From Phytoseiulus persimilis (taxonomy: Eukaryota; Arthropoda; Arachnida; Mesostigmata; Phytoseiidae): a stretch of DNA of 64,000 bases. The translations under genes and the position numbers were made by a program. Shown piece by piece: positions 1 to 37,121 of this stretch. Numbering within the stretch: position 1 is the stretch's first letter; each line of letters starts with the position of its first letter. The stretch lies in assembly GCA_037576195.1 (NCBI GenBank), contig CM075104.1:8624775-8688774 (forward strand). Direction: 5' to 3'. The notes below the pieces were generated by a model that saw only the letters and a program-made list of their open reading frames with translations, was not told the DNA's origin and did no database searches.

Positions 1-432
1 TCTAACTCATCATCTGGCAGAGCAAACTTGAAAACGATTTCTCAGCCCTCAACACAGTCATCGTCATTGCTCACGACGACCACTCGGAAACCAATGATCA
101 AAGTCATGACTTCAACAACTACCTCAACAACAACAACAGCCTCAAAAATAGCCAGCAAGCCTTCAACATCTGCTACGACTCAACAGTCCTCATCCGAGAG
201 TTCTTCTCTCACTACCACTGCCTCATCAATTGCTGATGAGAGCTTTGTACAGAAAATGGTAGCCTCTTCTACTGAGACAACCTCAGCAGAGGTCTCTTCA
301 GAATACTCAACGCCTCAACCGACCACTACCAGTGCTCCGCCACCTGAAGCTCTCCCCATGATCTTTCACATACCATCTAATAGGTATCAATGTGAAATCA
401 TTTCATTCAACGATTATGCAGATCCATCGTAG
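1..432 (+). CDS. C-terminal end of a Ser/Thr-rich (mucin-like) protein, partial
   Basis: The frame is open from the first base of the window and stops at a TAG at 430-432, so at least 143 residues are coded and the start lies outside. About the first 100 residues are mostly Ser and Thr with runs of Thr, typical of O-glycosylated stalks of secreted or membrane proteins. The last 30 residues are different: a short hydrophobic/aromatic stretch with a single Cys before the stop. No catalytic motif, membrane segment or splice evidence is visible. Low-complexity composition alone can keep a frame open, so this may be the last exon of a mucin-like gene, part of a transposon glycoprotein, or chance. 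No family is recognised. Confidence 0.3.
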   Translation, partial: SNSSSGRANLKTISQPSTQSSSLLTTTTRKPMIKVMTSTTTSTTTTASKIASKPSTSATTQQSSSESSSLTTTASSIADESFVQKMVASSTETTSAEVSSEYSTPQPTTTSAPPPEALPMIFHIPSNRYQCEIISFNDYADPS

Positions 433-1085
433 ATCGGACCTGTGTTCTTGTAAAGCGAATGACCAGACTTAATCATCATCTATCTGTTCTCCCATACAAG
501 AACGATGACCATGTTTTGGATGAGGTGTGTTAATTATTCCAAGGGTTTCAAAGCTCCCTTGTTCGTTGTTTCGCGCGCTCTGTAAATTTCCTCGGGAGAA
601 GTCCCACACACGTAGCGCGCCTCGCATTGTGTAGATCTTCGAGCGCGCTCCTCCGGCGCGGGGACCGCCATCTTAAGATAAGTTGAGAAAGTGTAACAAA
701 CCGGCCCCACTTGTGTGCGAAAGTCTGCTCCGACGTCGTCCCTTCCGAGTCATGCCCGTGCTCCATTCTCCGGAAAAAGACGACACGGCGTCAGGTAGTT
801 CCAAATGCGTCTAAAATTAACAAGGTGCATTCAAAGATTCCACAAGTTTGTGATGGTCATCGTAACTTCATTGCGTGAAAAGTAAATTTTCAATTCGAAC
901 AATGAGAAGATTATTCATTCTACTATGGGTCAAATATTGATAACAGTTGTACTGTAAGGAGATTCAGGGCTTGGTTGCTCTCTTGAATCTGGCCGCTGTT
1001 CTGTTCCAAGCTGCTGATACGCACGTCGGCGTAGAGCTTGAATTGTGCAGGCGAACAAGCTGCACAAATTCAAAGAACCGCCTGA
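433..1085. other. Gene-free stretch upstream of the BEL pol
   Basis: I see no coding frame with recognisable content, no BEL 5' LTR and no match to the sequence after the BEL pol. The BEL element therefore appears to have lost its LTR, gag and protease on this side. Confidence 0.5.
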
Positions 1086-1200
1086 TCTCCTCATCCGGAG
1101 GACATTTCGTTTCTCTGGGACACGGAAGTCATGGGTATCGAGCCATACTTCAAGGAGAACGACGAAGCACCGGATGAGGAGATCAGGCGGTTCTTTGAAT
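1068..1200. repeat. Perfect 31-bp inverted repeat at the broken 5' end of BEL pol
   Basis: Arms 1068-1098 and 1170-1200 are exact reverse complements with a 71-bp spacer. The right arm is normal pol coding sequence; the left arm is the same coding sequence turned around. This looks like a short inverted duplication made when the element was truncated. Confidence 0.9.
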
Positions 1201-4200
1201 CAACGACGACGAGAGACCCAGACGGGCGGTACGTCATTCAGCTGCCGTTCAAGCCAAACATTCATACTTTGGGAGACAATCGGGATCTCACGGAGCGGCG
1301 TCTGGGGAGTTTCCTCGCTCAAGCAAGGAAAAACCCACAGCTGCTCGAAGCGGTGGATGCAGAAATGCAAGATTTGCTCGAGCAGGAGTTCATAGAACTC
1401 ACGGATCCTCCCACGCCCGGAGAGCAGTCTCATTATTTGCCATTACTAGCAGTAATCAAGAAGCAGGCGACGGCCACTTCGAAGATGAAAGTCAGAGTAG
1501 TGAACGACGCCAGTGCGCGGTCACGAAATGCGGCAGGCCTGAATGATGTATTGTTCCAGGGTGAAAATCTCATTAGGGAGTTGATTGCGGTGGTGTTACT
1601 GTTTCGGCAGTTGCCAATAGCCATAACGGCAGATATAGAAAGGGCATATCTACAGTTCAAAATCACGCCGGAACATAGGAAGTTTTTGAGGTTTCTGTGG
1701 CCGTTAGGAATCAGCAAGAACCCGAGGGCCAAGTTTCGAGAAATGCGATCGTGTCGGTTGTCATTCGGCTTGATCTCGGCACCATTCCAACACTGCGCGG
1801 GGATCCGATTGCATTTAGAGCACGAGATCGCGCGGAGACCGGAGCATCGAACACTCCTGGGATTCGTAAAGAAATATTTCTACGTCGACGATCTGCTGGC
1901 AGGCGCGGAAAATGTCCAACAGGGACAAAAAGTGGTCGAAGTTCTGAATGAGTCGTTTGCTGTGGGTTGTTTTCCGCTCAAGAAGTGGTCAACGAATTCA
2001 GCGGAACTCGGGGAATTCATCACAGCAAAATATCCGGATGCGACCGTCACTTTCCAAGATGAGAATTTCAAATTTCTGGGCGTCCGATGGAATCAAAGAG
2101 CGGATTCGCTGCATATTGACGCGACTAGGACAATCGAGTTTTTCAAGGCGGGTTCTCCATCGAAGAGAGCTTTGCTGAAGGGCGCGAGTCAAGTTTTCGA
2201 TCCAATCGGTCTTGTCGCGCCAATAATGCTAGGATTCAAGAGGCTGCTCCAGAAGTACTGGCAGAAAAAAGTAGACTGGGACGCACCGCTAGACGAGGCA
2301 GATAAGGCGGAATATTTGGAAACCACGGGTCGCTTAATGCACGTGAAAGAGGTCCGCGTCGAGCGGAATTTCGGGAAGATGGTTGGGCAGACGTGCGCCA
2401 GCGCGCAAGAACTGCATGTATTTTGCGATGCCAGTTTGTTGGGTTATGGTTGCGTAGCATATGCGAGAGATATCGGCGAGCCGGGTAACGTGAAGGTAGC
2501 TTTCATAATGGCGAAGGGCAGAGTAGCACCGTTGAAGGGGGAATGGTCCATCCATAGACTGGAGCTGTTGGGTGCCATTGTTGCCACGAGGATCGCGAAG
2601 AAAATTGGCGAGGCGGTGAACGTTCCCTTTGTATCGGTGAATTTCTGGTGCGACAACGCATGTGTCCTAGCTTGGATTAGAGATCGACCGGAGCGGTGGA
2701 AGAGCTTTGTGGAGAACCGCATCAGAGAAATCCAGAGTAGTTCGGAAGCACGGCAATGGAGATACGTCAGAACAGCGGACAACCCGGCAGATCTTGTTTC
2801 GAGATTCTCAGCGCTAGATACGGCGGAACTCAGAAAGTTCTGGTTGTCGGGACCGAGTTGGTTGGGAACTGTGGGTATGCCTCGGAGTCATTCCTTAAAC
2901 CCAGACGAGCTAGAACGGGAGGTCGCGAGCGAGAAAAGGTCGCAGTGTTTCGTTGGAGCAGCCACGGCGAGCGTAGGAATGCTGAATATACCGTTGGGCT
3001 CTTCTTGGGCGAAGTCGATGAGAGTTTTGGCGTACATCTTTCGATGGAGACGGTATAAGAGGGTTCTCAAACCACAGTGGCTACAGACAGTCACGGCGCC
3101 TGAATGGCAAGCTACGGAACGGGAGGTGTTCAAACGGGTGCAACAGCAGCATTTCGGGGCAGAACTCAGCCAGGGGCTCAAGGAGCTGTCGAAAAAGAGC
3201 GAAATTTCCCAGTTCAGTCCATTCCTGGATGCGGACGGGCTCATCAGGTGTCGGTCGAGGTTGAGTAATCTCAAAGATGTCACGTTCGACATCAAGAATC
3301 CAGTGATTCTCCCAGGAGAGAACGAGGTGGTAGCGGCATACATTCGCTGGACGCATGAGCAACTATGTCTGCACGCCGGCGCGGTGCAAGGGATTCTACA
3401 GCGGTTAAGGAGGAGGTTTCTCGTGTTAAGAGCACGTCGGGCCGCTAGCAAGGCGCTGGTGGCGTGTCGCACATGCAATCGTTTCAAGGCGCGACCAGCG
3501 GCCGAAGAGATGCCGGACTTGCCTGGGTTCAGAGTGGCCACTGCGCCAGCGTTTCATACGACAGGTGTCGACGCGGCGGGACCACTCACGGTCAGGAATT
3601 CGGCGGGGAGAAAGGTTCCGGCGTACGCAATGATTTTCGTATGTCCAGTAGCGCGGGCAGTGAGGATAGAACTGGTCGAGAATTTATCCACGTATGAATT
3701 CCTGATGGCCATGCGGCGGTTCTACAACAGGAACCCTACGGTTAAGGCTTTTTATTCGGACAACGCCGCTGCGTTCCGACGGGCGGCGAAAGAAGTGAAA
3801 GCCATGTTCGATTTGTCGAGAGCGGCGGAAACGCAGAGTTTCCTAGCAAAAAATTCGCTCAGTTGGTTTCACTCGACGGAGAGGGCGCCGTGGAGGAATG
3901 GTTTCACGGAAAGGCTAATAGGAACGATCAAACGCCCGTTGAGGAAGATTCTGGGGAGAAACATTCCCACGTTTAGGGAACTAGAGACGATTCTCACGGA
4001 CATCGAGAAGATAGTGAACGACAGGCCGTTAATGTGCGTCAGCACGAATCCCGATGAGCTGCTACCGTTGAGACCGTCAGATTTGCTATACGGGAATCAG
4101 GTGCAGCCAGCGCTGCCAGATCTAACGAACGTGATAAACACGTCGGAGTTGGCCACACCAATCATATTATCGGAAAGATGGAAATATCAGCAGAACATCA

Positions 4201-4493
4201 TGAACGCGTTTTGGGCAAGATACCGGAAAGAGTACTTGGTTCAGCTGAAGTCCAATTTAGCAAGGCTACCGGTAGAAAGTAGATCATTGAGGGAGGGCGA
4301 TATAGTTCTCCTAGACGACCCAGCGGCATCGCGAGCGTATTGGCCCATGGCTCGCGTGCATTCTGTTTGCCGCGGGGAGGGAGGCTCAGACGGACGCGTC
4401 AGAACCGTGATCGTACGACTACCTACGGGAAAATTCCTTAAAAGACCCATCCAGTTACTCTACAAGATAGATGTGGCGCCAGCCGTAAACTAG
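1086..4493 (+). CDS. pol: BEL/Pao retrotransposon polyprotein (RT, RNase H, integrase), 5'-truncated
   Basis: The frame is open from 1086 (first ATG 1131, 1120 residues) without any stop. Counting from that ATG: RT with ADIERAYLQF (about 167) and the catalytic FYVDD (about 250); RNase H with FCDAS (about 430) and WCDNACVLAWI (about 505); a zinc-binding integrase N-terminus with HEQLCLHAG and CRTCNRF (about 740-785); integrase catalytic core with GVDAAGPL (about 812), YSDNAA (about 875) and the Glu in GFTERLIG (about 928); and the C-terminal DUF5641-type domain of Pao integrases. BEL/Pao polyproteins normally begin with gag and an aspartic protease; both are missing, and the frame starts inside an inverted repeat. 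The rest is undamaged, so truncation was recent or the domain is under constraint. The stop lies 49 bp from the end of an opposing gene. Confidence 0.95.
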   Translation, partial: SPHPEDISFLWDTEVMGIEPYFKENDEAPDEEIRRFFESTTTRDPDGRYVIQLPFKPNIHTLGDNRDLTERRLGSFLAQARKNPQLLEAVDAEMQDLLEQEFIELTDPPTPGEQSHYLPLLAVIKKQATATSKMKVRVVNDASARSRNAAGLNDVLFQGENLIRELIAVVLLFRQLPIAITADIERAYLQFKITPEHRKFLRFLWPLGISKNPRAKFREMRSCRLSFGLISAPFQHCAGIRLHLEHEIARRPEHRTLLGFVKKYFYVDDLLAGAENVQQGQKVVEVLNESFAVGCFPLKKWSTNSAELGEFITAKYPDATVTFQDENFKFLGVRWNQRADSLHIDATRTIEFFKAGSPSKRALLKGASQVFDPIGLVAPIMLGFKRLLQKYWQKKVDWDAPLDEADKAEYLETTGRLMHVKEVRVERNFGKMVGQTCASAQELHVFCDASLLGYGCVAYARDIGEPGNVKVAFIMAKGRVAPLKGEWSIHRLELLGAIVATRIAKKIGEAVNVPFVSVNFWCDNACVLAWIRDRPERWKSFVENRIREIQSSSEARQWRYVRTADNPADLVSRFSALDTAELRKFWLSGPSWLGTVGMPRSHSLNPDELEREVASEKRSQCFVGAATASVGMLNIPLGSSWAKSMRVLAYIFRWRRYKRVLKPQWLQTVTAPEWQATEREVFKRVQQQHFGAELSQGLKELSKKSEISQFSPFLDADGLIRCRSRLSNLKDVTFDIKNPVILPGENEVVAAYIRWTHEQLCLHAGAVQGILQRLRRRFLVLRARRAASKALVACRTCNRFKARPAAEEMPDLPGFRVATAPAFHTTGVDAAGPLTVRNSAGRKVPAYAMIFVCPVARAVRIELVENLSTYEFLMAMRRFYNRNPTVKAFYSDNAAAFRRAAKEVKAMFDLSRAAETQSFLAKNSLSWFHSTERAPWRNGFTERLIGTIKRPLRKILGRNIPTFRELETILTDIEKIVNDRPLMCVSTNPDELLPLRPSDLLYGNQVQPALPDLTNVINTSELATPIILSERWKYQQNIMNAFWARYRKEYLVQLKSNLARLPVESRSLREGDIVLLDDPAASRAYWPMARVHSVCRGEGGSDGRVRTVIVRLPTGKFLKRPIQLLYKIDVAPAVN

Positions 4494-6257: not shown

Positions 6258-6647
6258 GACTGCAGGTTTTGCATCATACATCACATAGGATAGTACAAGC
6301 ACAGTCAATATGCCTGCATACAGCTGAATGAAATTTAGTCCATTCGTTGGAGTCGGAACTGGCTGCGGCGGTTTGTTGTGGGTAAAGTTGTAATAGTCTA
6401 TCCAAATGTCTGATCCACCCTGAACATTTCCGTCTGGATGCATACACACAACTTTAGGTGACGCCAATTCTTTACAGGCATCGTTCAAGTCAATGCAATC
6501 TACCCGGAAAATTTCTGGATTACGCTCGTGTAGTGTGCATGGTTATTTTAGTCGGATGCAGATGGACGTGCAATCTTCAGCGCATTCGATGTACGCGGCG
6601 ACCTTGGTCGCCATCATGATTGTGATCATGAACATCTTCAGTTGCAT
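6258..6647 (-). pseudogene. Copia H small membrane protein (six-cysteine, env-like), one stop
   Basis: The ATG at 6647 overlaps the end of pol (stop at 6577) by 71 nt in another frame. A hydrophobic N-terminus (residues 5-18) fits a signal peptide. Cys at 26, 30, 37, 51, 58 and 68 are followed by Pro 71 and Trp 82. Near residues 110-128 there is a membrane segment with a hydrophobic IQLYAGILTVLVLSYVM core, then a short tail. One in-frame TAA is codon 35, inside the cysteine region, so this copy is broken. The same cysteine spacing occurs in the Copia A and B proteins. The role is unknown; position and topology resemble retroviral-type envelope genes, but no fusion-peptide-like or cleavage motif is visible. 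Confidence 0.7.
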
Positions 6648-9666: not shown

Positions 9667-10030
9667 TGTCAGAGAGGAAATTCGTCTTCAGTGGCACACT
9701 AGCTAGAAGGCTCCGTGCACAGGCAGATTCACCTCACGGACACTGATACGGTAGCAAGGAGAAGACAGTACGGCGTATAGATGAACAGTAGTTTATTCGG
9801 GTGTGGAGTATGGTTATATGGGATGTGATTGGGAGAGTGAAAGTTGTTGAGTTGAGTCTTCGGGGAGTACTTCGAGGGTGTTAGTAATTACGGCACTAAG
9901 CCGGGGTTCTAAGGTTTTCTGATGAAAGGATTGATTACTTTGGCGCCTTGAGTGGCGTGGGTTCTAGTACGAACCGAGTCTGCTGAATCTAGATTCGGAT
10001 GCATCCGCTTTCGCGTGTTGCATCTCAACA
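9667..10030 (-). repeat. 3' LTR of Copia A
   Basis: On the minus strand it begins TGTTGAGATGCAACACG and ends TCTCTGACA (TG...CA). It holds an AATAAA (plus strand TTTATT near 9791) and a TATA-like CATATAACC. It is matched at 17540-17903. Confidence 0.95.
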
Positions 10031-10522
10031 GCCCCTCTGATTCTGGAGACGCAGGGAGTACTATGAACAATTCGTAGTTACCTATGACCTAATTAAATGA
10101 TGAATTTATCGAGACCAGAGGGAGTGTTCCATATCTTGTTTAGGCTTTAACATTTGAGGGTCTTGGTTGTTCTAGAGTTGATCTCTGAGAGCAGTCGTAA
10201 GTGGTACCTGTGTGTTCTCGTTGTAACGTGCCCGAAGACGTTGGGTCTTGTTTGTTATTGTTCTTGTTGAGGTTCTTGTTGTTGCAGGTGGCGTTGTTCT
10301 TGAGTCGTTGGGTCTGCATCGACACGTTCGGCGCAGAGGCTTACAGGTCTCTCCCCCGTGCGCCGAAGCGTAGGCGCTTTGGGAGCCAATGGGAGAATTG
10401 AATGGAGCGGTTGGAGCCAAAATGGGAAGAGGGTAGATTATTGTGTTTGTTGGGGTCGAAGGTCTTAAACGGTGTCACTTTGTTCGCCAGGGAGAAAGAA
10501 AATAGTCAAGCATTCCGAGACG
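10031..10522. other. Copia A 3' non-coding region with polypurine tract
   Basis: Directly before the LTR the minus strand reads AGAGGGGC, a usual plus-strand primer. The rest, with a purine/GTT-rich stretch, would hold the promoter and leader of the opposing gene; a TCACTT initiator-like site is near 10475, but no good TATA box is seen. Confidence 0.5.
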
Positions 10523-11344
10523 ATGTCGCAATCCGAAGGAAAATATTCGGAAATGTTGGTCGGCCAAACGAGCCTCAGTGAGAGGGCGCTCCGTTACGCA
10601 AAGAGGGAGCGACGGCAGGACGACGAGCCGATGGGAGACTCTGAGTTAGAATCCCCCGTCGAGTCCGTCAGTGAAGGTTTCGCCGAGATGCCACAATCGC
10701 CTGAGAACATCGGAGCTGATGAAGAGGAGCACACGGTGACGGAGGCTCCTGTGGGAGCGGCACGGCAATCGACTGTTGGCTTGGTGGCCAATATTGGGTC
10801 CGTGGTGGCAGCGACGCCCCCTCTGAGGGTTCGATTTTCGATCGACTCTCAGGGGCAGATGGAAATGGAGGGCTCCCTGTCGAGCCTGACTGACCGTCGA
10901 GCACGGAATCCATTCGTGTCGTTAAATCTGGAGTCTTCGACTTGCCGATCATCCGGGAGGTCGATCAGATCCCTGAAGTTGGGTTATTGGTTCTTCGGCG
11001 CGTTGCTGGTCCTGGTCGGGTCAGGATTCGCGATCGAAGTCGCAATCGACTTCGGGGGGACTGGTGTGAATCCGACCGAGAGAATCACCACGGTTGCACC
11101 TGAGATGTCAACGGTGCCGAGCGATAATTTGTGGCCGCCGTCGATACCTGGTGGCAACCGCCAGCGGATGATGCTCCGCGGCCTTGATTGTGAGCTTGAC
11201 ATCCAACATATACTCTGCCGATCTCGCGTAAGGGGAATTTGTGTTTTGTTGAAGGAGAGGCGACGACCCTTAGTTGAGGTTGTTCCCTCTGATCCGATAC
11301 AGAGCGAGGGGTGCAGGGGGTACTTAAGTTACATCGAAGTTTGA
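10523..11344 (+). CDS. Copia A antisense gene: single-pass membrane protein, 273 residues
   Basis: The ATG at 10523 opens an intact frame on the strand opposite to gag-pol; an upstream GTG at 10472 is in frame but a weaker start. Residues 1-150 are Ser/Glu-rich, low in hydrophobics, and end in a basic cluster. Residues 153-172 are a membrane segment (YWFFGALLVLVGSGFAI). The remaining 100 residues carry Cys 223, 232, 240 and 264, spaced C-x8-C-x7-C-x23-C, with an LVEVV between the last two. Basic residues before the membrane segment and no signal peptide predict type II topology, C-terminus outside. The Copia B antisense gene has the same plan and the same cysteine spacing. It is convergent with the six-cysteine gene, 175 bp apart. 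No known family is recognised. Confidence 0.72.
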   Translation: MSQSEGKYSEMLVGQTSLSERALRYAKRERRQDDEPMGDSELESPVESVSEGFAEMPQSPENIGADEEEHTVTEAPVGAARQSTVGLVANIGSVVAATPPLRVRFSIDSQGQMEMEGSLSSLTDRRARNPFVSLNLESSTCRSSGRSIRSLKLGYWFFGALLVLVGSGFAIEVAIDFGGTGVNPTERITTVAPEMSTVPSDNLWPPSIPGGNRQRMMLRGLDCELDIQHILCRSRVRGICVLLKERRRPLVEVVPSDPIQSEGCRGYLSYIEV

Positions 11345-11519
11345 GGTGTACAACAGAGAAATTTCATTGTGAAGTAGAAGATTTTGTGTTTTTTTTTTTA
11401 AATAACGTTCCTATCATAAACAAGAGCTGGCCTAACTACGCGCCATTCAAAAAAAATGTCTCATCGTTGGGTTGGTGTGTCAAATCTCTCTCTATTCTTG
11501 TGTGGTACGCTGGGAGATT

Positions 11520-11999
11520 TTATTCTCGGTCTACTCTGTGGAGCGAGTTATCTGGGGAGTTGTAGGGTGGAATAGGTTGGTACGATTGCATACGGGCGTA
11601 GCTCCGTTTGTAGGTATAAAAGACACTGAAGAGGGCTATCAATAGGATGCAGTTGAGAATGATTGAAGCATAAGGTATGGTCTTATTGGTAGTGATATGA
11701 TCTGGTTGGGGCATTGGTCGAGTTTCTTTGTATTTCTTCCAAAGGGATTCTCCTCCCAGAGGGGGGAAATCGGGCATCAAGCACACGATGTCAGGAGAAG
11801 AACTCTGGATGCAGTTTAGGGAAGACATTGAGCATTGAGTAATGAATTGTGCGGGTTCGACTTCTCGAATGGTGCAACAGTCGGATAAATTTTTACAGGA
11901 TCCGCAATCTTCGTAGTCGAAGTAGTAGAATGAGCCGAAGACGGGTGTTTGGAGGACGGCAACGGAAATGGCAGTGATTAGGAAAGTTGTGAATGCCAT
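11520..11999 (-). CDS. Copia A small membrane protein (six-cysteine, env-like), intact, 159 residues
   Basis: The ATG at 11999 lies inside the end of pol (22-nt overlap, different frame). Residues 1-22 form a signal peptide. The ectodomain has Cys 32, 35, 42, 56, 63 and 73 (plus 41), then Pro 76, Trp 87 and an NKT glycosylation sequon at 105. Residues 109-130 are a membrane segment, followed by a basic stop-transfer and a 29-residue tail containing YQPI, a possible Yxx-hydrophobic sorting signal. This predicts a type I membrane protein. The spacing C-x2-3-C-x6-C-x12-13-C-x6-C-x9-C-x2-P-x10-W is shared with the Copia B and H proteins although other residues differ widely, so it is a conserved gene. 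It is much shorter than retroviral envelope proteins; the function is unknown. Confidence 0.85.
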   Translation of the reverse strand: MAFTTFLITAISVAVLQTPVFGSFYYFDYEDCGSCKNLSDCCTIREVEPAQFITQCSMSSLNCIQSSSPDIVCLMPDFPPLGGESLWKKYKETRPMPQPDHITTNKTIPYASIILNCILLIALFSVFYTYKRSYARMQSYQPIPPYNSPDNSLHRVDRE

Positions 12000-14900
12000 C
12001 TCCGCAGTCCTATAAGTGCGAGAAGTTTTTGGAAAGCTGGGCGGGGCAAAGGTTCTGTTAGAAGATCAGCTAGCTGTTTGTACGTCGTCACGTAAGCGTA
12101 GCTGATTTGATTCTTTCGATGTGTTTCTCGAATGAATTTATATCTGACATCAATGTGTTTTGTCCTTAGATGGAATTCGGGATTGAGCGTGAGCCTGATC
12201 GCTGAGATATTATCTATGTAAATTTTCGGTCGGAGGGGAAGCTTGAGTTCTTTGAAGAGAGCGCTAAGCCATAGGGCGTCTTTTGCGCCTTCAGTCGCAC
12301 TGATAAATTCGCTCTCGGTTGTTGAAAGGGAGATGCTCTTCTGTTGTCGGCTTGACCACAAGATGGGACCGCCGTTTAATTTTGTGATGGAGCCACTCAC
12401 AGATCGACGCGTTTCTTCGCAGGATGCGTAATCGGCATCCGTGTAGATCTCAAAGGTATCCTGGAGTTTATCGAACGAGCCTCTGGAGTAAACAATGGAA
12501 AGATCTGGGGAGTCCTGCAAGTAGCGGAGGACTTTTAGAGCAGCGTTCCAATGCTCTTCTGTGTGGTTGTCGAGAAATCTTGGTAGGTAGGAAACTATAT
12601 ATGAAATGTCCGGGCGGGTACATAAGGACAAATACATGAGCGAACCTAGTAAGCACCGATATGGGCGAGTTGAATTTGAGTCTTTGTTACGTTCGAGAGA
12701 ATAGATCGAATTATCTGCTGGGGTTGCGATTGGCCTTGCGTGTTCCATTTGGAAACGCTTAAGAATTGACAGAGCATAGTCTTTTTGGTTTAACCACACG
12801 TTATGGAACTTATCGATATGGATGTGTATACCTAGGAAAGTGTTCAACAGTGATGTTTTTATCTTGAACGATTTAGAAATTTGCGCAAGAAGATCGCCGA
12901 GAATGTTTTGATTTATTGACATAACTAAGACGTCGTCTACATAGGCTACGAGTAGTGTCAGAGCTGAACCAGGGCCATGTCTGAAGAACAGACACGGGTC
13001 AGCTTGACTTTGAACAAGGTCAAGATTTGTGAGTACTTGTCGTAGTTTGGTATGGAAGCTTCTTGGTCCTTGTTTGATGCCGTAGAGGCTTTTATGTAAT
13101 CTGCAAACCTTGTTGGTTCCGTCGGAGAAGCCGACTGGTTGGTTGCAGTAGAGCTCTTCGTTGAGCTCTGCATGAAGGAAAGCTACCGATATGTCGAACT
13201 ATCTCGGAAAAAGTTTCTTTGCTGCACAAAGGGAGAGTAGACAACGCAGGGTGTCCCAGCGAGCTACAGGGGCGAATATTTCCCCGTAATCGGTTCCGGG
13301 TTTCTGTTGAAACCCGCGAGCCACGAGGCGTGCTCGGAATTTGTCAGCATCATTTTCCTTGTGAGGACGGTAGCGAAAAACCCATCGGACGGAGATTGGT
13401 TTCTTATGTTTTGGCCCATCAACTAGGGACCAAACTTGGTGAGCTTTGATCGATTCCATTTCTGTTTTCATTGCTCTCTGCCACTCTTTGGCAAAAGGTG
13501 ATTGCATCGCTTCTTGGTAGGTTGCAGGCGAAAATATTTCGTTTAATTCGGTTTAGTATCTTATTGGCCGTTCAATCTCGGTCCTTTTTCTTAACTTCAT
13601 TGTCGTTATAGGCCAGTTTTCTTCTTTGTCAGTTGATTCATCCTCTGAGTCCTGTGAGACCAAACAGGGAGAATCGGGCCGCGGCTCTTCAGAATTGATA
13701 CTTTCATTGTCTTCTATGTCTGAGCCGTCATTTTCTTGCGGCGTTTCTTTATCATACGTTTCTTGTAACGTTTCAGGCCTTTTCGTAAAGTCACTGCTTG
13801 TGAGTTTCGTTCCTTTTCTTATTATTCGCCTTGCCGATATAAACTTCACGTCCTTAGAAATCCAGAGCTTGCGTGTTTTATGAATGAATACGCGAAAACC
13901 GTCTAAGCGCTCTGTATAGCCTAACATTGTACCGAAAAGAGCTCTGTGGCGCCATTTCGAAGTCTTTGGTCTATGATCGTAGACGTAGCAGGGAGAACCG
14001 AAAGGGTGGAGATTCGATAGGTTTGGTGGGCAGCCATAGATTGTTTCGAAAGCGGATTTCCCGGTCAAGGGACTGATGTTTGTCGAATTGAGGAGATAAG
14101 AAGCACAAACGCAGGCTTCGCCCCAGAACGCAAATTCGAGATTGGCGGAAATGAGCATGGTACGAGCGAGTTTCTGTATGGTCTGATTGTTTCTCTCCGC
14201 TAAGCCGTTAGATTCATGAGCCGTTGGTGGCGTGACGATATGCTCTGCGCCTATACCATCGAGAGCTTTCTTTAATGTTGAGTTGCAAAATTCCCTTCCA
14301 CCACCAGTTAGTAATGATTTGATATCGGTACCGGTTTGGTTTTTGAACCATTTCAAATATTTGATGATGAGCTCCGGAGCTTCACTCTTTTCCTTTAGTA
14401 AGTGGAGACGATTGAATCGGGATGTTTGTTCGTGTAGGTTCATAAAATATCGGTGACCTCCCAAGGAGGGCCGAAAAGGACCACAAAGGTCAGTATGAAG
14501 CAGTTGGCCTAGTCAGGTTGGCCTCATCGTTACAGGTTTAGAATGGTAACTTGTCCTATTCATTTTTCCTTTGATGCATGATTCGCATTCCTCGTTGTCT
14601 GGTTTGAACCGAATGTTATTCTTTCTGAGTAGCTTCTGTATTGCGTTTTTGTTGATATGACCGAATGCCCCATGGGCTTCTTGGAGAGACGGGTGGCTGT
14701 TAATAAGGAAGATGAATACTTGTGGACTATTGAGTGGAAGGATTGGTGTAGCGTTAAGTACATAGAGACCATGTTCCAGGTGCGCGTGTATCGTATATGA
14801 ATTTTCGGATATGGTGAACGAAGTCCGGTTTGCCATGACAGTCCAGCTGTCGCTGAGCAATGCGGAAATTGATACCAAGTTCCGACGGAGACCGGGCGCA

Positions 14901-15024
14901 TAAAAGGCGTGATCAAGGCAAATGATGGCCTGGTCCGGGGTCGTATGAGTTTCGAGCAGAATCGTGCCTGTACCGATTGCTCGAAGTGTTTCCGATCCGC
15001 CCACCCTGATTATGAGTGGAGTTT
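11978..15024 (-). pseudogene. pol: Copia A pol (protease end, integrase, RT, RNase H)
   Basis: One frame runs the whole length, broken only by in-frame stops at 14513, 13553 and 13199. In order: the end of protease and the GAG-pre-integrase zinc region (HINK and CESCIKGK); integrase core with TGGGREF and the Glu of HESNGLAERNNQ; an acidic linker; RT with WVFRYR, FDIS and catalytic AYVDDVLV (about 12945); RNase H with YTDADYA, LSTTESEFI and IDNISAI; and the C-terminal LIGLRRW. The first integrase Asp region appears changed (TGGGREF for the usual D). Gag and the protease active site (ILDSGSS) lie in another frame, so a frameshift just after the active site (15025) is needed. Confidence 0.92.
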
Positions 15025-17271
15025 CTATAATAGTTCTTCATAGTTGAAGAATGGCTGTAATGAATTACAAAAATGGTTTGAGCTTCCGGAGTCTAGGATC
15101 CATTTTTCTGATTGATCAATGTCGTTTGAGGTGGATGCCATGAACAGTTCAGCTTCGAAGAGGGTTGTTTGCCCCGCTTCGATTTGAGTGAGGTGTGCGC
15201 GCGGGGTTTGATTTCGGTGATTGCCGCGTCCGCTAAAGCCTGAGCCTCGATAATTGTTGTGGCCGCGTGGGTCGGTTGCACCTCGTGAGGGTGTTTGCAT
15301 GGGTTGGGATTGGTATTGATTGTTTTGATATTGGTTCGGGCGGGGAGCGTTGAATCGATTAGAATTGAATGAATTTGTTCGTGGGTAGTTATGGTATCTC
15401 TGGTTGTTGTTGTTGAAGGAAGGGCGAAAGGAATTGAAATGGCTGTGTTGATTCATGGGACGCGGTCTTGGGTTGTAGAAACGAGGATTAGAGTTGAAAA
15501 ATCGGGGGTTTGACTGGAAAGATCGAGCGTTGGGAAAAGTTTGAAGTTGTGAGTAGTAAACGGCATGGTTATTATGAGTATTGATGCGCGCACTTTGAGC
15601 TTCCGATAGGAGTCTTGTCTGCTCGCTTGCAATCATTGCATACAGATTAGTTATGTTTCGCTGCTCTACGGGTTGGGTCCCCCATGTTTGTTTGAGAAAT
15701 ACCCAGCTCTGAGGTAGTGCCTGGAGGAGGCAGGGTACGAGAATTGTATCATTAGTTTTCGCTCCGGCATTGATTGCCTCAGCCACAAGCTGTCGGAAAC
15801 GAAGAACGTTCTGGGATGGGGTTTTTACTGAATCGAATTTGAACGTAAAAATGTTTTTCATGGCGGTTTGTTGTCGGAGACCAGTCACGTTCTCAAATTC
15901 TTCTGTGATTGCCACGTACAGGGTGGTCATCGTAAGTCGGGAATTTTCTCACTCTCTCTTCTTTTGCTCATAAATCGGTGAAAAATTGTCCGATTCTGGA
16001 ATTTTTTTTTGCGTTCGATAGCTGGAAGGATGGCGCATCTTTATCATCAATTTCGTGAATCGGTAGAAAATTGAATTTCGCGAATCGGCTCAAAGATTGC
16101 AATTATTATTTTTTAACTTTTCTCAAAAAAACAGTCGACAAACTTCTGAAGTCGACCGATCGAATTCGAAAGTGCCAAGGTCGACGCAGGATAGGATGCT
16201 GCTCAAACGCCCGGCAACTCCAGGTTTCTAGCTCAGGATCTGTGAGAAGGACGAAAGATCGTTTCAACCTTGACCTCAAGATCGACCTCCTGACAAGATC
16301 GCGTTCTCTCTGCATTTTGGCCCGTAACTCCTCAGGGAAGCCGAATTCGGAAAATTTTCCGGATGCAAAAAGTTCTTAGAATGGTCCAAACTACCTGACA
16401 AAGAAGTTTACGGGTCGATCCGACAACTTTTTCAAAAAAATTGAAAATCGGGATCTCCGGCGGGAAAAAAAAAGTTGTCGGATCGACCCGTAAACTTCTT
16501 TGTCGGGTAGTTTGGACCAGTCTAAGAACTTTTTGCCCTCGGAAAATTTTCCGAATTCGGCTTCCCTGAGGAGTTACGGGCCAAAATGTAAAGAGGACGC
16601 GATCTTGTCAGGAGGTCGATCTTGAGGTCAAGGTTGAAACGATCTTTCGTCCTTCCCACAGATCCTGAGCTAGAAATCTAGAGTTGCCGGGCGTTTGAGC
16701 AGCATCCTATCCTGCGTCGACCTTTACACTTTCGAATTCGATCGGTCGACTTCAGAAGTTTGTCGACTGTTTTTTTGAGAAAAGTTGAAAAAAAATAATT
16801 GCAATCTTTGAGCCGATTTGCGAAATTCAATTTTCTACCGATTCACGAAGTTCGAGGGGGAAAGATGCGCCATCCTTCCAGCTATCGAACGCAAAAAAAA
16901 ATTCCAGAATCGGACAATTTCTCACCGATTTATGAGCGAAAGAAGAGAGAGTAAGAAAATTCCCGACTTACGATGACCACCCTGTATGCGCTTGCGGCAG
17001 AAACCTTGGATATTGAATCGTTAAATTTCAACTGGATGAGCGAAATATTAATCGAATTGAGTAAAATGCTTCGCGCAAGATTGTTAGCATTTTTGTAATC
17101 TGGGTCGGTTATGGGCAGAGTGCCGTGAGCAGCCTCGAAGCATTTATCTTCGGCGAGAAGTAATATGTCTATGACGGTTTTCCGGGCCGAATAATTTTTG
17201 CCGGCAATGTCCAGTTTAACCGCCGTTAGGTTGGAAAGTTTCGCGGCGCTCGTGGAGGCACTGTCAGCCAT
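15025..17271 (-). pseudogene. gag: Copia A gag, split by a mariner-type element
   Basis: The ATG at 17271 starts a Copia gag whose frame is interrupted at 16985 and resumes at 15918 when the insertion and one TA are removed. The N-terminal half has the UBN2-type helical gag pattern. The C-terminal third is a basic region rich in Asn, Arg, Phe and Gln instead of a CCHC knuckle, as in the Copia B gag. The frame ends with the protease active site ILDSGSSNHF shortly before the stop at 15025. A 15-bp perfect hairpin abuts the start codon. Confidence 0.88.
15919..16984. mobile_element. Palindromic Tc1/mariner-type foldback element
   Basis: Ends are CAGGGTGGTCATCGTAAG and its complement, flanked by TA (15917-15918, 16985-16986), the Tc1/mariner target. 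The arms are about 510 bp each, almost identical, and meet over a spacer of about 30-40 bp near 16450. There is no transposase. A transcript would fold into one very long hairpin. Confidence 0.9.
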
Positions 17272-17305
17272 CACAGCACGCCGTGGATCCCCACGGCGTG
17301 CTGTG
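17272..17305 (-). repeat. Perfect 15-bp hairpin touching the gag start codon of Copia A
   Basis: Arms 17272-17286 and 17291-17305 are exact complements with a 4-nt loop. In the minus-strand RNA the last base of the stem is followed directly by the gag AUG. It could be a dimerisation/packaging element or a brake on initiation. Confidence 0.75.
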
Positions 17306-17526
17306 TGTGTCTCGTGGCTGTTCCACCTCAAAATTAACTGGTGAAGGTGTATCAAAGTCTACTTGATCGGGTACAAGGATGATGAAAGAATCACTTTCGG
17401 CTGGTGATATCATGAGAAATTTGATGACTCCGCGACGGTGGTAGGGATAAAAAAAAATGACTGCTCACCGCGTACTATCCTGTTAAACTTACCGAAGGAC
17501 CGCAGGCGCTGCACGGGACAAGCAAA

Positions 17527-17539
17527 GGCGCTGATAACG
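17527..17539 (-). promoter_or_regulatory. Primer binding site of Copia A
   Basis: Immediately after the 5' LTR the minus strand reads CGTTATCAGCGCC. Copia B has CGTTATCAGCCAC at the same place (26714) and H has CGTTATCAAGCAC two bases from its LTR. The complement looks like a tRNA anticodon arm cut after the loop (CU-GAU-AA-CG), as in the internal half-tRNA priming of Drosophila copia. Confidence 0.6.
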
Positions 17540-17903
17540 TGTCAGAGAGGAAATTCGTCTTCAGTGGCACACTAGCTAGAAGGCTCCGTGCACAGGCAGA
17601 TTCACCTCACGGACACTGATACGGTAGCAAGGAGAAGACAGTACGGCGTATAAATGAACAGTAGTTTATTCGGGTGTGGAGTATGGTTATATGGGATGTG
17701 ATTGGGAGAGTGAAAGTTGTTGAGTTGAGTCTTCGGGGAGTACTTCGAGGGTGTTAGTAATTACGGCACCAAGCCGGGGTTCTAAGGTTTTCTGATGAAA
17801 GGATTGATTACTTTGGCGCCTTGAGTGGCGTGGGTTCTAGTACGAACCGAGTCTGCTGAATCTAGATTCGGATGCATCCGCTTTCGCGTGTTGCATCTCA
17901 ACA
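17540..17903 (-). repeat. 5' LTR of Copia A
   Basis: 364 bp, the partner of 9667-10030, with the same termini. The flanking GATCT matches the one at 9662-9666. Confidence 0.95.
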
Positions 17904-29747: not shown

Positions 29748-31901
29748 AATCAAATTCCCGGTCAATAATTTCAGGAGCTATTTAGCCCTGTTGCCAGGCT
29801 GGACACTGTCCACGTTTTGCTTGCCACTAGTGCATCAATGCGTTTAAAACTTCGTCAATTTGTCGTAACTACCGCCTCCCTCTATGGCGATCTCCAGGAA
29901 CAAATTTGGATGACCCAACCCCCCGGATGGTCAGATGACACCGGCAGGGTATGCCTGTTGCACAAGAGTCTATACGGGCTCAAACAAGCTTCGCGGTGCT
30001 GAAATCAGAAATTGGCAGATGTTCTACGGAATCTCAACTTCACTCAAAGCCAAGCCGATCACTGCCTATTCTACTGGCACAGCTCGAATGGCGAACTCCT
30101 AATGCTAGCAGTGTACGTCAATGATGGGCTAATCGCATCGACGCATGAACACTTGATGACAGATACACTTGCCAAACTGGGAAAATCATTCAAACCTGAG
30201 ACTTCTCATCTGAGTCTCTTCCTTGGCATTCAGATTCATATCGATTCCGATCACAATATCTGGCTGAACCAGTACAAGTACATCAAAAACATCCTGAAAA
30301 GGTTCAATCTTGAGGATTGTCGTCCCGTCTCAATTCCCGCAGACTCGGGAATACACAGATACTTGCGAGCCCAGAAGCAGAGTACTGGAAAAAAGCAATG
30401 GCTGAGGAAATGGCCGCACTTAGAGCTCATGAAGTTTGGACATTGGTCGACCCACCACAGAACAAGAAACCCGTACCTTGTCGCTGGGTCTTCCGCAGGA
30501 AAACCAATGCTGAAAACGAAATAGACCGTTACCGTGCACGTCTCGTTGTTCGCGGTTATAATCAAATTCCCGATCAAGAATTTCAGGAGCTATTTAGCCC
30601 TGTTGCCAGGCTGGACACTGTCCGCGTTTTGCTTGCCACGAGTGCATCAATGCGTCTAAAACTTCGCCAATTTGACGTAACTACCGCCTTCCTCTATGGC
30701 GATCTCCAGGAACAAATCTGGATGACTCAACCCCCCGGATGGTCCGATGACACCGCCAGGGTATGCCTGTTGCACGAAAGTCTATACGGGCTCAAACAAG
30801 CTCCGCGATGCTGGAATCAAAAATTGCCAGATGTTCTACGGAATCTCAACTTCGCTCAAAGCCAAGCCGATCACTGCCTATTCTACTGGCACGGCTCGAA
30901 TAGCGAACTCCTAATGCTAGCAGTGTACGTCGATGATGGGCTGATCGCATCGACGCATGAACACTTGATTACAGATACACTTGCCACACTGAGAAAATCA
31001 TTCAAACTCAAGACTTCTCCTCTGAGTCTTCTCCTTGGCATTCAGATTCATATCGATTCCGATCACAATATCTGGCCAAACCAGTACAAGTACATCGAAA
31101 ACATCCTTGAAAAAGTTCAATCTTGAGGATTGTCGTCCCGTCTCAATTCCCGCAGACTCGGGAATATACGACATTGAGCCTACAACTGAAACTCGCGCAG
31201 AAGATCGACCTTATCGCCAACTTCTTGGCGCTCTCATTTTCTTATCTTTCTGTACGCGACCAGATGTCTGTTTCTCTGTGGGTTTCCTAGCTCGCTTCCT
31301 CGAGAATTATTCGGACCAACACTTGCAGGCAGCACTCAAGATCCTGCGTTACTTGCAGGCGACACCCAACCTGTCGATTGTTTACTCCGGAAGCTCGTCC
31401 ACTCCGCTAGCTGAAACGCTCAAACTCTATTCGGACGCCGATTTCGCTGCTCGTGAACAGACCCGACGCTCGGTAAGTGGCTCACTTGTCACACTTGCCG
31501 GCGGTCCAGTCCTGTGGTCTTCCCAACAGCAACGATCAGTCTCACTATCCTCAACCGAGAGCGAGCTCATAGCGGTCACTGACTGCTCAAAGTCTGCTCT
31601 CTGGCTTCGAACACTCTTCCAAGAATTACGAATCACTATTCGTCCAGTGATCTAGGTGGACAAGATTGGAGCGATAAAGCTCATAGAGAATCCTGTATTC
31701 CACAAGCGTACAAAACACATTTCCACGAGATTCTTCTTCAGTCGTCAACTACACGAACGTTAACAAGTCAAATATCGATATATTCCGACGACAGAGAATC
31801 TCAATGACGGTCTGACGAAACCACTTCACAAACCAATCTTTGAGCGTCTCCGTACACTGATCGGTTTGCGACCATGGCCGCTACCACAATCTTGTTCATA
31901 G
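29520..31901 (+). pseudogene. pol: Copia B reverse transcriptase (two copies) and RNase H
   Basis: The first RT copy has lost function: its active site reads AVYVNDGLIAS (N for the first catalytic D) and it carries stops. The second copy has AVYVDDGLIAS, DVTTAFLYGDL and a frameshift near 31120. RNase H follows with YSDADFAAREQTRRS and LSSTESELI, then a stop near 31655, and pol resumes to LIGLRPW with its stop at 31899. The pol end overlaps the start of the six-cysteine gene by 28 nt. Confidence 0.92.
29549..31172 (+). repeat. Tandem duplication (812-bp period) of the RT domain
   Basis: ACTTGCGAGCCCAGAAGC recurs at 29549 and 30361, and the two units stay nearly identical to the GACTCGGGAATA at their ends. 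812 is not a multiple of three, so the second RT is out of frame with the first. Confidence 0.95.
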
Positions 31902-32490
31902 TGTTCACGCTCTACGTTCTCTCTGTCCAATCCGCGTCTCCGAACTATTTTCGCTTCTAAGACTGCGATGACGCCTGTGTTTCATTAAACATCCGCTGTA
32001 CAATTAGCAAGAAGCCAACCGGTTTCCAATGCGCCTGTACACGTTCAGCATCGGCATGCTACAATGAAGCATCCGAGTCCGTGGTCTGTCTGAGGCCTCT
32101 TCTTCCTGCTGTGGATGGCAACCAAATTTGGAGAGAATTCCGGGATCAACTCTATCCCGTTCTTCCCCCTGTCATCATTGACAACAGGTTTCTGCACTAT
32201 GCTTTCGCAAGCGCGGGCGGTATACTCGCATTGGCCGTCTTTCTGGGAATCATGGTCCTCTGCATGATCTAGGATAAGCGTAGAGACTATCATTCATTTG
32301 CGAACCCATCGCCAAACCCAGCAGTTGATGGGGCCTACATCCCAACCACGGAGCTCGACCTCAACCCTAGATCTAATTTATCCGATGCACTTCATTCCTA
32401 TTTTACCCATTCGGTCCTACCATGCAACTTAGGTAGCACAAACAACTCGGAATGCTCAAGTCAATTCTTCAATAGCCCACAAACGGTGTG
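31874..32490 (+). pseudogene. Copia B small membrane protein (six-cysteine, env-like), two stops
   Basis: The ATG at 31874 lies in the pol end in another frame. Residues 1-21 form a signal peptide. Cys 31, 35, 42, 55, 62 and 72 (plus 53), Pro 75 and Trp 86 match the Copia A and H proteins position for position. A membrane segment (GGILALAVFLGIMVLCM) precedes a TAG at codon 133; the frame then stays open for a basic, Pro/Asn-rich cytoplasmic-tail-like stretch. A TAA at codon 29 lies before the first Cys. Both stops look like decay. Confidence 0.75.
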
Positions 32491-34036: not shown

Positions 34037-34305
34037 CTCCAAACCGCCGTGAATCTGCGACGTATCCGAAAGAGGCACCTAGCTGTGCTGTACTGGTTCA
34101 TACGCATCTTTTCTCTCTCAGTTTCTCAGAGCACTTCTTCGGCCTCCATTCACTTCTTCCACTTCTCCCGCATGATTCCCCTTCGGCATGGCATCATATC
34201 ACGTATTAACCTGATCGTGATTTTCCTTGGTTCCTTGGACGCAGTTCGCCCCGACCGCTAGCATCCCATAGCTTGGTTTCCCTCCAATCCCTACTACCCT
34301 GCACT

Positions 34306-34983: not shown

Positions 34984-37121
34984 CCATATCAAAATCCTAA
35001 GTTACTAAAATGTATGCACGGACGTTTTTATCCCGAGTCGACGAACACACCAGAGATTCAGGCTTGAATTTTTTTTCCGTTTTCCGTTTATTCACGATCA
35101 CTCTCGAAAAACAGTTCATAACTATCACAAAGTGGCATAGGACTGCCGACCCCTCTGCGAGCGACAACCTCGCGTAGCTTGTCGCTGCGACCTTTGCGTA
35201 ATACCACGCAGCGTTGCTGCAGAGGGGTACAGCACACTAACCGGTGCTCGACAACACGACAGACGAAATCCACCAGGGATATCCGAACGTCTGCTGGGCC
35301 ATCCTGGCCCCCACCTGTCTGGATGGCGGGCATCTCCTCCGGGCTCTGGCTCCCGATCGCCCACCACTCCGTGCTGGTGTGCGTGCGCTCCGCCAGCACG
35401 GCAAACCTTCGCTTAATGTCGGTATTACGGATAACCTCCCGTGTGAGGGACGGTCGAATAATGGAAGACAAAAGGAGGGGGTTCGAGAGTAATCTCGGCT
35501 TCGGTGGTCCGCTCCTCTTCTCCTCTTGTCGGCTCCGTGCCGGAACTAACCGCTGCAGACGGAGGTGACGACGACTGTGTTGTTTTCCCGGTCGAGCGCG
35601 CTTAGCAGCGCACTCGACGCGGGTTCTGGTGTGAGGAGGGAAGGAGACGTCGCGACGTCCGCCGGAGGCTTTATTGGCATCTTTTCTCTACCTATTCGTG
35701 TCCGATTGGTAACAGTCGGAGCTTCCGGATCGCTGTTCCGTGACGCCCCGCCGCTCCCCTGTCGCCGAATATCCTGCAAAACCCATCAATGGTCACATAA
35801 GGGACACAGGTCGGTCCGCGCTCCTATGGGCGTCAAATCGCTGCCAGAACATACTACTCAATATAACTTACCAGCCACGACCCCGAGCACCATCAACAAC
35901 ACGACAAGCCCGGCAGCCGCGAGCGCTCGGGTTCGCCCACACTGGCACTTCCCCAAGAGCGGCTCGAACACGCTAGCCCCGCTGCTGTTGTCACTCGGCT
36001 GAACCGAGCCGCTCCGATCAGTGCGCGCTCGGGGCCTCTCGAAACTGTCCACGGATCTTCCTGTTGAACTCGTCCGAGAAAGCCAGGGCTCCCCGCTACG
36101 ATGCTCTGGCGAGCCAAACACGATGCCTTCACGACCAAGCCTCTCTGCTCGCGCCGAGATGGTCCTCCTCCAGTCAAGATCCGACAGCTCACTTGCTGGG
36201 GAGGCGGCAACAAGGCCCCAATGTTTACAGTCTTTTCAGGCGGATGGATGCATTCGCTCACGCTCCCCGTGAGCGGGCGGTGCTAGATGCCTGCGAAATC
36301 AGTGGGAGGAGCCCGCCGTCTCAGCGGAGCGTTCGATCGGCTGCCAGCTGACTTGCGGCAGCTCTTCAAGCGCGATCATGTAATTGAATCAAGCATTGAA
36401 TTGAGTCATCCGAAGAACACATTCTCCTGCGGCATTCGAAACGGCTAGACTAATACTTGGAGACATAATAAACCCGGGAATATCTGATTTCCCTCAGGTC
36501 AGGAGAGGGAAGATCAGGTTTCACGGAATTCTCGATTCTCAATAATTGGGGCTGTATGCATCCGCAGTGACGATGAGCCATCTACAGATAGGGGGTTCCA
36601 TGGCGCTCTACCGAACGGGAATCGCAGGTCAACCAAGAAAAGCAGAGGAGCAGTCGCAGCCAGACACCGATCGTTGGACTTCGGTCTGACCTGGCTGTGG
36701 AGATTCGCCATGAAGTTCTCTGAAGATGGTGCTTGGTAACTTTAAAGGCGAATTCGGGGATGTCAGCTGGTTTGGGGAAACTCTTCAATCAACGATTGAT
36801 CCGAATTTCGTCTTTTCGCACTTTTTCCTTGTCCGCTGACGATCCCTCATGCACTGAGGGCACAGCTTGATCGGGAGCCGATCCGCACCTATGGGGGGAA
36901 CCGCCTGTGACGCGGATCGAGCTTCGATTGATGAGAAGAACAGTCTGAAGGGAACTCTGGAGAATGGAACGGCGTGTAAACAGGCATTTGAACGTCCCAC
37001 GACGTCGGTGTCTCTGAAGTGTGTGAATAAACGTCAGTTCATAACCTCTGAGGGAACTTATATCGCACATTTCGCAAGGGAAGGTCGACCGGGTAAAACC
37101 ATGTCATAGCGAATCAGCGTT

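What the first reader, a model, noticed from the sequence alone, without database searches (positions are those of the whole stretch)
11520..11999. A six-cysteine membrane protein conserved in three diverged Copia elements
Copia A (11999-11520), B (31874-32272) and H (6647-6258) each have, overlapping the pol end, a frame with signal peptide, six Cys, one membrane segment and short tail. The spacing C-x2-3-C-x6-C-x12-13-C-x6-C-x9-C-x2-P-x10-W is the same in all three although most other residues differ. That is hard to get without selection on the protein. Ty1/copia elements of animals are not generally described with a third, envelope-like gene; plant Sireviruses are the known exception.
Basis: partly seen in the sequence, partly recalled or inferred. 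Interest (0 to 1): 0.95.

Follow-up and report, generated by a model that had tools for sequence, protein, structure and literature searches.

The report
Copia retrotransposons with two membrane genes
A group of Copia "jumping genes" in this genome carries a conserved small membrane protein gene after its usual genes, and facing it on the opposite strand a second membrane protein gene, which suggests that these elements, thought to stay inside one cell, may have tools for passing between cells.

Summary
The reported protein is real and far more widespread than stated. ORF3 (window 11520-11999, minus) starts inside the end of Copia pol. Four genome searches give at least 211 loci; the copies read form 11 families, and 104 of 150 scored Copia RT hits have an ORF3 downstream. 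Of 68 open copies read, 64 keep the six-cysteine spacing. All families share a cytosolic Y-x-x-hydrophobic motif; all but A share a C-terminal PY-x-x-T. Omega is 0.28-0.46 and significant in three of six families; in A, the family of the named copy, it is 0.94, so selection within A is not shown. ORF3 and pol distances agree (r 0.89). Window copies B and H are broken by stops.

The larger finding was not reported: the same elements carry a convergent antisense gene between ORF3 and the 3' LTR (window 10472-11344, plus), apparently a type II membrane protein, with a four-cysteine end in seven families. Of 177 antisense loci, 126 face an ORF3. In element A both genes lie between 99.5% identical LTRs.

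Env-like sense ORFs and antisense ORFs are known in plant elements; I found no report of either in animal Copia. Function (leaving or entering cells) is inferred; expression, structure and host identity are untested.

The parts
9667..17903 (-). Copia element A, LTR to LTR, with GATCT on both sides
   Evidence: blastn of the two ends, 365 aligned bases with 2 mismatches; target duplication read by eye from the bases printed; Copia-type gag, integrase-side SH3 and RT domains
9667..10030 (-). 3' LTR of element A
17540..17903 (-). 5' LTR of element A
15025..15930 (-). gag part of element A (weak Retrotran_gag_2 match, below the family's cutoff)
   Evidence: E 8.6e-6
12716..13438 (-). reverse transcriptase part of element A (one stop inside in this copy)
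   Evidence: RVT_2 hit G000:C4:8637490-8638212, E 2.7e-58
11978..12922 (-). end of pol of element A, overlapped by ORF3
11520..11999 (-). ORF3: type I-like membrane protein of 159 aa with six cysteines
10472..11344 (+). antisense gene of element A, type II-like membrane protein of 290 aa (first ATG of the frame at about 10523)
31874..32272 (+). ORF3 of copy B, broken by stops
35088..35687 (-). piece of the antisense gene of copy B with the four-cysteine domain
35858..36235 (-). piece with a membrane segment, probably the front of the antisense gene of copy B
   Evidence: assigned by position and orientation only
6258..6647 (-). ORF3 of copy H, one stop, tail missing
933..1199 (-). remnant of an H-like ORF3 (tail only)
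   Evidence: E 2e-6
1..875 (+). remnant of an H-like antisense gene facing the tail at 933-1199
   Evidence: pieces 396-530 (E 1.7e-14), 1-429 (7.5e-9) and 687-875 (0.0021)

Best explanation
Shown: Copia elements of this genome carry a conserved ORF3 overlapping the pol end, and an antisense gene whose 3' end faces that of ORF3. ORF3 looks like a type I membrane protein with a compact six-cysteine, probably disulphide-bonded outer domain and a cytosolic tail with a Y-x-x-hydrophobic motif. The antisense product looks like a type II membrane protein with a four-cysteine outer domain (in seven of the families), often on a Ser/Thr-rich stalk. Inferred: the two are a membrane module that lets the element's particles leave or enter cells, for example from soma to germline. 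ORF3 would be made from the element's sense RNA by re-initiation or a spliced message, enter the secretory pathway, reach the plasma membrane and recruit or transfer particles through its tail; the antisense product, made from a promoter in or near the 3' LTR, would act as attachment or shield protein. It would work like an envelope, or like the sORF2 cell-to-cell transfer protein of Drosophila MDG1 elements, built from unrelated parts.
For: ORF3 downstream of 104 of 150 scored RT hits, with 1 of 150 upstream; cysteine spacing in 64 of 68 open copies; 15 invariant columns over 11 families at 22-32% identity to the window protein; ORF3 and pol distances agree (Mantel r 0.89, p 0.0006); omega 0.42, 0.46 and 0.28 in B, C1 and C3; Y-x-x-[LIMVF] in 59 of 59 and PY-x-x-[TS] in 49 of 59 copies of 140 aa or more; antisense loci convergent with ORF3 in 126 of 177; antisense omega 0.40, 0.63 and 0.37 in A, C1 and H; both genes inside the LTRs of element A.
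Against: No expression, localisation or transfer data. No fusion peptide, furin site or sequence relative of a known fusogen was found, and no Pfam family over its cutoff matched. ORF3 omega is not distinguishable from 1 in A, C2 and H; antisense omega not in C2. 46 of 150 RT hits have no ORF3 hit and 51 of 177 antisense loci have no convergent ORF3 in reach. D-type antisense frames lack the cysteine motif. Two groups of copies share in-frame stops in the ORF3 match. P, sorting-motif and topology readings rest on recalled rules.
Confidence: 0.5

Rival explanations
1. ORF3 alone is a FAST/sORF2-like cell-to-cell fusion or transfer protein of a non-enveloped particle; the antisense gene is a separate, for example regulatory, function.
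For: Small single-pass protein with basic residues after the membrane segment; sORF2 is a precedent in LTR elements, in 7 of 22 Lepidopteran consensus sequences also downstream of pol (PMC11952523).
Against: ORF3 has a signal-peptide-like start, no MG-x-x-x-[ST] start in 11 of 11 representatives and about 85 residues with six cysteines outside the membrane; sORF2 proteins are 63-107 aa with about 30 residues outside. The antisense product looks like a membrane protein itself.
Confidence: 0.2
2. The two products are intracellular accessory proteins, for example channel, Golgi or superinfection-blocking proteins that help replication in the same cell, not transfer between cells.
For: Pseudoviridae are described as intracellular (PMC8515867); some plant antisense products are nuclear (PMC7264820); a tyrosine motif would also fit endosomal proteins (recalled).
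Against: Conserved cysteines and a Ser/Thr-rich stalk fit an outside-facing domain better; inference only.
Confidence: 0.2
3. The antisense frame is not a protein gene; the strand matters as regulatory RNA, or the frame is a side effect of composition.
For: Antisense transcripts with a regulatory role have been proposed for plant elements (PMC7264820).
Against: Third-position excess of differences and omega 0.40 in A and 0.37 in H; the same four-cysteine spacing in A, B, C1, C2, C3, H and I; frames of 517-564 codons without stop.
Confidence: 0.05
4. ORF3 and the antisense gene belong to another element or virus nested in Copia copies.
For: None found beyond the lack of relatives of known function.
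Against: Both lie inside the LTRs of element A; ORF3 descent follows pol; the ORF3 start overlaps pol with a frame offset typical of the pol clade.
Confidence: 0.02

Closest known systems
sORF2 of Drosophila MDG1-group LTR retrotransposons (PMC11952523; abstract, sections 8, 10 and 12 and passages read)
   Same: Small single-pass membrane protein of an LTR element, with a basic patch after the membrane segment, proposed to pass capsids between cells.
   Different: sORF2 belongs to Metaviridae, usually lies upstream of gag, has a myristoylation motif in most of the six MDG1 members and about 30 residues outside; ORF3 belongs to Copia, overlaps the pol end, has a signal-peptide-like start and a six-cysteine domain, and faces an antisense membrane gene. 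No sequence relation was tested.
Sirevirus env-like third ORF (PMC8515867, whole text read)
   Same: Copia element with a third ORF downstream of pol.
   Different: Sireviruses are described as restricted to plants; sequences were not compared here.
Plant and fungal antisense aORF-3R (Grande, RIRE2, Retand, PvRetro13, Boty; PMC7264820 section 5 and passages, PMC11963269 passages)
   Same: Conserved antisense gene between pol and 3' LTR.
   Different: Described products are nuclear or carry DNA-binding or chromosome-related domains (e.g. TRP28); here the product looks like a membrane protein and faces a sense membrane gene.
Chuvirus-derived glycoprotein captured by a Pao element of mosquitoes (PMC10084718, passages read)
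   Same: A membrane glycoprotein gene carried by an arthropod LTR element.
   Different: That paper reports no clear evidence of such capture by Copia or Gypsy elements; ORF3 is far smaller than a viral glycoprotein.
HIV-1 ASP and HTLV-1 HBZ (HTLV antisense promoter: passage in PMC7264820; ASP and HBZ themselves recalled)
   Same: Antisense genes of retroviruses; ASP is membrane-associated (recalled).
   Different: ASP overlaps env (recalled); here the antisense gene ends short of ORF3 without overlapping it.

Membership tests
Ty1/Copia (Pseudoviridae) | Copia-type RT (RVT_2) | tested here: met
   RVT_2 hit at window 12716-13438, E 2.7e-58
Ty1/Copia (Pseudoviridae) | gag, then integrase side, then RT, between LTRs | tested here: met
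   weak gag_2 match at 15025-15930, SH3_retrovirus in 13553-14464, RT at 12716-13438, LTRs at both ends
sORF2/FAST-like proteins | N-terminal myristoylation motif MG-x-x-x-[ST] | tested here: not met
   0 of 11 family representatives begin with MG
sORF2/FAST-like proteins | 63-107 aa with about 30 residues outside (sORF2-like set of PMC11952523) | tested here: not met
   159-177 aa in 11 representatives, 183-201 aa in P0002-P0005; FAST proteins proper reach 200 aa
sORF2/FAST-like proteins | one membrane segment followed by basic residues | tested here: met
   hydropathy, basic residues before the Y motif in 59 of 59 copies
sORF2/FAST-like proteins | cell-cell fusion or capsid transfer | not testable with these tools
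   needs experiments
Sirevirus | third ORF downstream of pol in a Copia element | tested here: met
Sirevirus | placement in the Sirevirus clade by RT | not tested
   no plant reference sequences were aligned
Retroviral or errantiviral Env | large SU/TM precursor with cleavage site and fusion peptide | tested here: not met
   ORF3 is 159-201 aa and matches no Pfam family over its cutoff; cleavage site and fusion peptide judged by reading only
aORF-3R (antisense ORF between pol and 3' LTR) | conserved antisense ORF between pol and 3' LTR | tested here: met
   element A; convergent in 126 of 177 loci, 3' LTR located in A only
aORF-3R (antisense ORF between pol and 3' LTR) | homology to known products (e.g. 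TRP28, PF04195) | tested here: not met
   no Pfam match over cutoff for the A, B, C2 and H pieces

The most novel reading that the evidence does not exclude
A whole group of Copia elements outside plants has become virus-like with a two-protein surface module: a sense type I cysteine protein and a convergent antisense type II protein on a mucin-like stalk, used to pass between cells or individuals. It would be a retroelement whose surface proteins are made from both strands.
Probability: 0.35. Interest if true: 0.93.

Novelty: new variant of a known kind. Interest (0 to 1): 0.8.

Why it matters
The ICTV profile describes Pseudoviridae particles as non-infectious and intracellular and names a third ORF only for plant Sireviruses (PMC8515867). 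A conserved pair of membrane genes, each with significant selection in three families, would make it testable whether Copia elements can pass between cells, and would join the sORF2 case in suggesting that leaving the cell is a recurrent strategy of retrotransposons. A convergent antisense gene for a membrane protein would also be an unusual arrangement for a retroelement.

Tried and rejected
ORF3 as a chance frame or pol read-through: rejected. ORF3 as a nested separate element: rejected for A by the LTR borders and in general by agreement with pol. Relatives elsewhere: P0001 alone found none; the 11-family alignment found P0002 (100% identical to three own-genome loci) and P0003; the D-type alignment added P0004 and P0005, with P0003 192-201 aa and 60-61% identical to P0004, from ENA contigs without context. 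Four scans of viral contigs and one of genome contigs gave no relative; one alignment was too diverse to scan. COX1 for host identity: no match. An RVT_1 search at a very strict cutoff gave nothing and its controls gave nothing. An odorant-receptor search gave nothing and its controls gave nothing. A profile of the antisense domain without A does not find A; A-C homology rests on cysteine spacing, position and hhalign (E 3e-4, score 27.9 against a maximum of 19.6 in 60 shuffles); B against C (E 0.013) and B against A (0.032) are weak, but the two weakest hits of the A query fall on B-type loci found separately. My notebook first called two groups of copies with shared stops 'dead ORF3'; the open-frame lengths show the stops may lie only near an end of the match, so that is unresolved. 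Searches for prior reports of a third or antisense ORF in animal Copia; none found in the listings, of which only the papers named here were opened.

Rows dropped before counts: for the ORF3 count, new rows were added by hand to the 150, and one search did not list all its matches; for the A-type antisense tally, 3 of the 32 rows were left out (two B-type rows counted under, one further fragment of a locus already in). 95 ORF3 regions were read, not all 211.

Full report
OBSERVATION. At 11999-11520 (minus) the window holds an open frame of 159 aa whose ATG lies inside the last codons of Copia pol, 22 nt overlapping, in another frame. The frames named at 31874-32272 and 6647-6258 show the same cysteine spacing but are broken by stops. 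B and H are 31% and 32% identical to A. A profile from four other families of the genome (D group) finds all three in the six-frame window (E 6.6e-17, 9.1e-11, 2.2e-8), so they are homologues, not look-alikes.

EXTENT. In the window's own genome (181 Mb, 127 contigs) a search with the 159-aa protein gave 150 scored places, the cap, from 170 candidates. With four queries I count 211 merged loci, a lower bound. Of 150 scored RVT_2 hits (of 443 candidates), 94 have an ORF3 match within 4 kb downstream on the same strand by the first query, usually about 720 bp away; as controls, 1 of 150 has one upstream and 5 of 150 have one on the opposite strand within 5 kb. With all four queries it is 104 of 150.

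ANATOMY OF ORF3. I read 95 ORF3 regions: 20 have a stop inside the match, 7 are open but under 140 aa, 68 are open and longer; 64 of the 68 keep C-x2/3-C-x6-C-x12..15-C-x5/6-C-x9-C. The 64 copies that passed the extraction filter (62 distinct) form 11 families at a 62% linkage cutoff. One representative each gives 15 invariant columns: the start Met, two Phe, the six Cys, G83, W87, P95, Y134 and P145-Y146 of the window protein. Hydropathy of one copy per family shows an N-terminal hydrophobic stretch and, except in one truncated copy, one membrane segment. All 59 copies of 140 aa or more have Y-x-x-[LIMVF] after basic residues in the tail; 49 of 59 have PY-x-x-[TS], with 0 of the 5 of family A. 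Reading the first as a tyrosine sorting signal rests on recalled knowledge.

POSITION AND DESCENT. Where the pol frame could be read to its end, ORF3 overlaps it by 13-74 nt; some copies have pol broken earlier, and one overlaps by 106 nt. The frame offset is 1 in families A, B, D1 and D4, and 2 in C1, C2, C3, H and I, apart from one H copy with a broken pol. The pol tree splits the families the same way, and the ORF3 tree is compatible with it where resolved (four of its 13 inner forks are open). Distances agree (Mantel r 0.89, p 0.0006, nine families; D2 and D3 left out for lack of pol, D4 and I with part of pol only; median identity ORF3 27%, pol 39%).

SELECTION. Within families pN/pS of ORF3 after the first 25 codons is 0.22-0.63 in the six larger families and 0.43 in D4; D1 gives 1.66 and D2 has no synonymous difference, two copies each. 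Codon-model omega is 0.42 (B, 20 copies), 0.46 (C1, 10) and 0.28 (C3, 4), each better than omega 1 (2dlnL 23.8, 9.9, 14.0); A 0.94 (5), C2 0.78 (5) and H 0.74 (4) are not distinguishable from 1. The pol end of the same families gives 0.34-0.75. So selection within families is shown for three of six and not for A, the family of the copy named in the finding. The copies were chosen as open and similar to the query, which may lower omega slightly.

THE ANTISENSE GENE. The 1500 nt after ORF3 of family A are 93-98% identical between the window and four other copies and hold an antisense open frame, window 10472-11344 plus. Of 13 other family A copies looked at, 8 have it open over 288-312 aa and 5 have it broken or only in part. 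It has a long hydrophilic N-terminus, a membrane segment near residue 174, and cysteines at 240, 249, 257 and 281. Families C1, C2, C3, H and I have an antisense frame ending 57-101 nt after the ORF3 end in most open copies, Ser/Thr-rich and ending in C-x8-C-x7-C-[IV] and a last Cys. B has the same motif further away (window 35088-35687 minus). The start of one C2 copy shows a short N-terminus, a signal-anchor-like segment and a region with 34% Ser+Thr. By the charge rule this orientation is type II (inference). Open frames reach 552-555 aa in C2 copies, 517-518 in H and I, 326 in C1 and 245 in C3; the longest, 564, has no ORF3 in reach. Antisense loci are convergent with an ORF3 in 65 of 77 (C type), 24 of 37 (B type, within 4.5 kb), 15 of 20 (A type) and 22 of 43 (D type, unmerged rows); in the first three none is divergent or on the same strand, in the last there is one other arrangement. 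Many of the D-type misses are two repeat arrays. A uniform chance estimate for one convergent neighbour within 1.5 kb is about 0.0009; it ignores the clustering of elements. Antisense omega is 0.40 in A (2dlnL 30.2, 8 copies; 0.41 and 15.3 with a slightly different set), 0.37 in H (6.4, 3 copies), 0.63 in C1 (7.3, 7 copies) and 0.61 in C2 (1.9, 4 copies, not significant); C3 had too few. D-type elements have their own antisense frame without the cysteine motif; its relation to the others is open.

ELEMENT BORDERS. Element A is bounded by LTRs at 9667-10030 and 17540-17903 (2 mismatches over 365 aligned bases) with GATCT on both sides, so gag, pol, ORF3 and the antisense gene lie in one recent insertion (the 5-bp duplication read by eye). 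Its gag-pol is interrupted by stops. Of up to three copies looked at per family, an AATAAA or ATTAAA lies within about 41 nt of the ORF3 end in all of A, C1, C2, C3 and I and in two of three of H, and in none of B and D1; it may end a short ORF3 message, which is weak evidence.

MECHANISM. Shown: two conserved, convergently placed genes for membrane-type proteins, each with significant selection in three families (ORF3 in B, C1, C3; antisense in A, C1, H). Inferred: secretion and surface exposure, an antisense promoter near the 3' LTR, and a role in passing particles between cells. I give this 0.5, with a FAST/sORF2-like solo role and an intracellular accessory role at 0.2 each.

COMPARISON AND NOVELTY. 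The ICTV profile (whole text read) allows three-ORF genomes, names only the plant genus Sirevirus for them, and says the particles remain intracellular. sORF2 of MDG1 elements is the nearest working analogue, but its survey covered Metaviridae and ORF3 fails two of its traits. Plant and fungal elements have antisense ORFs between pol and 3' LTR, with nuclear or DNA-binding products where described. A survey of captured chuvirus glycoproteins reports no clear capture by Copia (PMC10084718, passages). Ten paper searches found no report of a third ORF or antisense gene in animal Copia; most subscription papers and Repbase entries could not be searched, so this is a limited statement. Hence: new variant of a known kind.

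HOST. Not named. Four large contigs of 28-55 Mb, about 50% GC in the window and no odorant-receptor match (whose controls were silent too, so inconclusive) would suit a phytoseiid mite (recalled, not tested). ORF3 relatives P0003-P0005 come from ENA contigs of unnamed source.

Noticed in passing
window 34210-34983 (+): Downstream of copy B's ORF3 a further sense frame of 257 aa with coiled-coil-like Pfam matches below cutoff; at least one family B copy (L030) has a similar open frame of 335 aa.
   Followed up: partly
own genome C2:5595250-5604068 (+) and C2:5663062-5678721 (-): Two arrays of the D-type antisense frame in opposite orientation, with a period of about 1389 bp and open frames of 322 aa in many units, without ORF3 beside them.
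   Followed up: no
own genome, hits (e.g. C3:38476427-38476846 and C4:344753-345208): Two groups of about 16 and 13 ORF3 copies that share in-frame stops within the match; either shortened tails or broken ORF3 that still spread. Not read.
   Followed up: no
window 45153-46641, 47983-48989, 52946-54620, 56794-58189: Four arrays of a 45-bp repeat that stay open in several frames on both strands.
   Followed up: no
own genome C1-C4: ORF3 loci are clustered, e.g. 22 of the 150 rows in the first 2 Mb of C4 and 10 at C1 42-44 Mb, as in TE-rich islands.
   Followed up: no
window 1131-4493 (+): A 1120-aa open frame that reads like a BEL/Pao pol (by eye, not tested), next to the H-like Copia remnant at 1-1199.
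   Followed up: no
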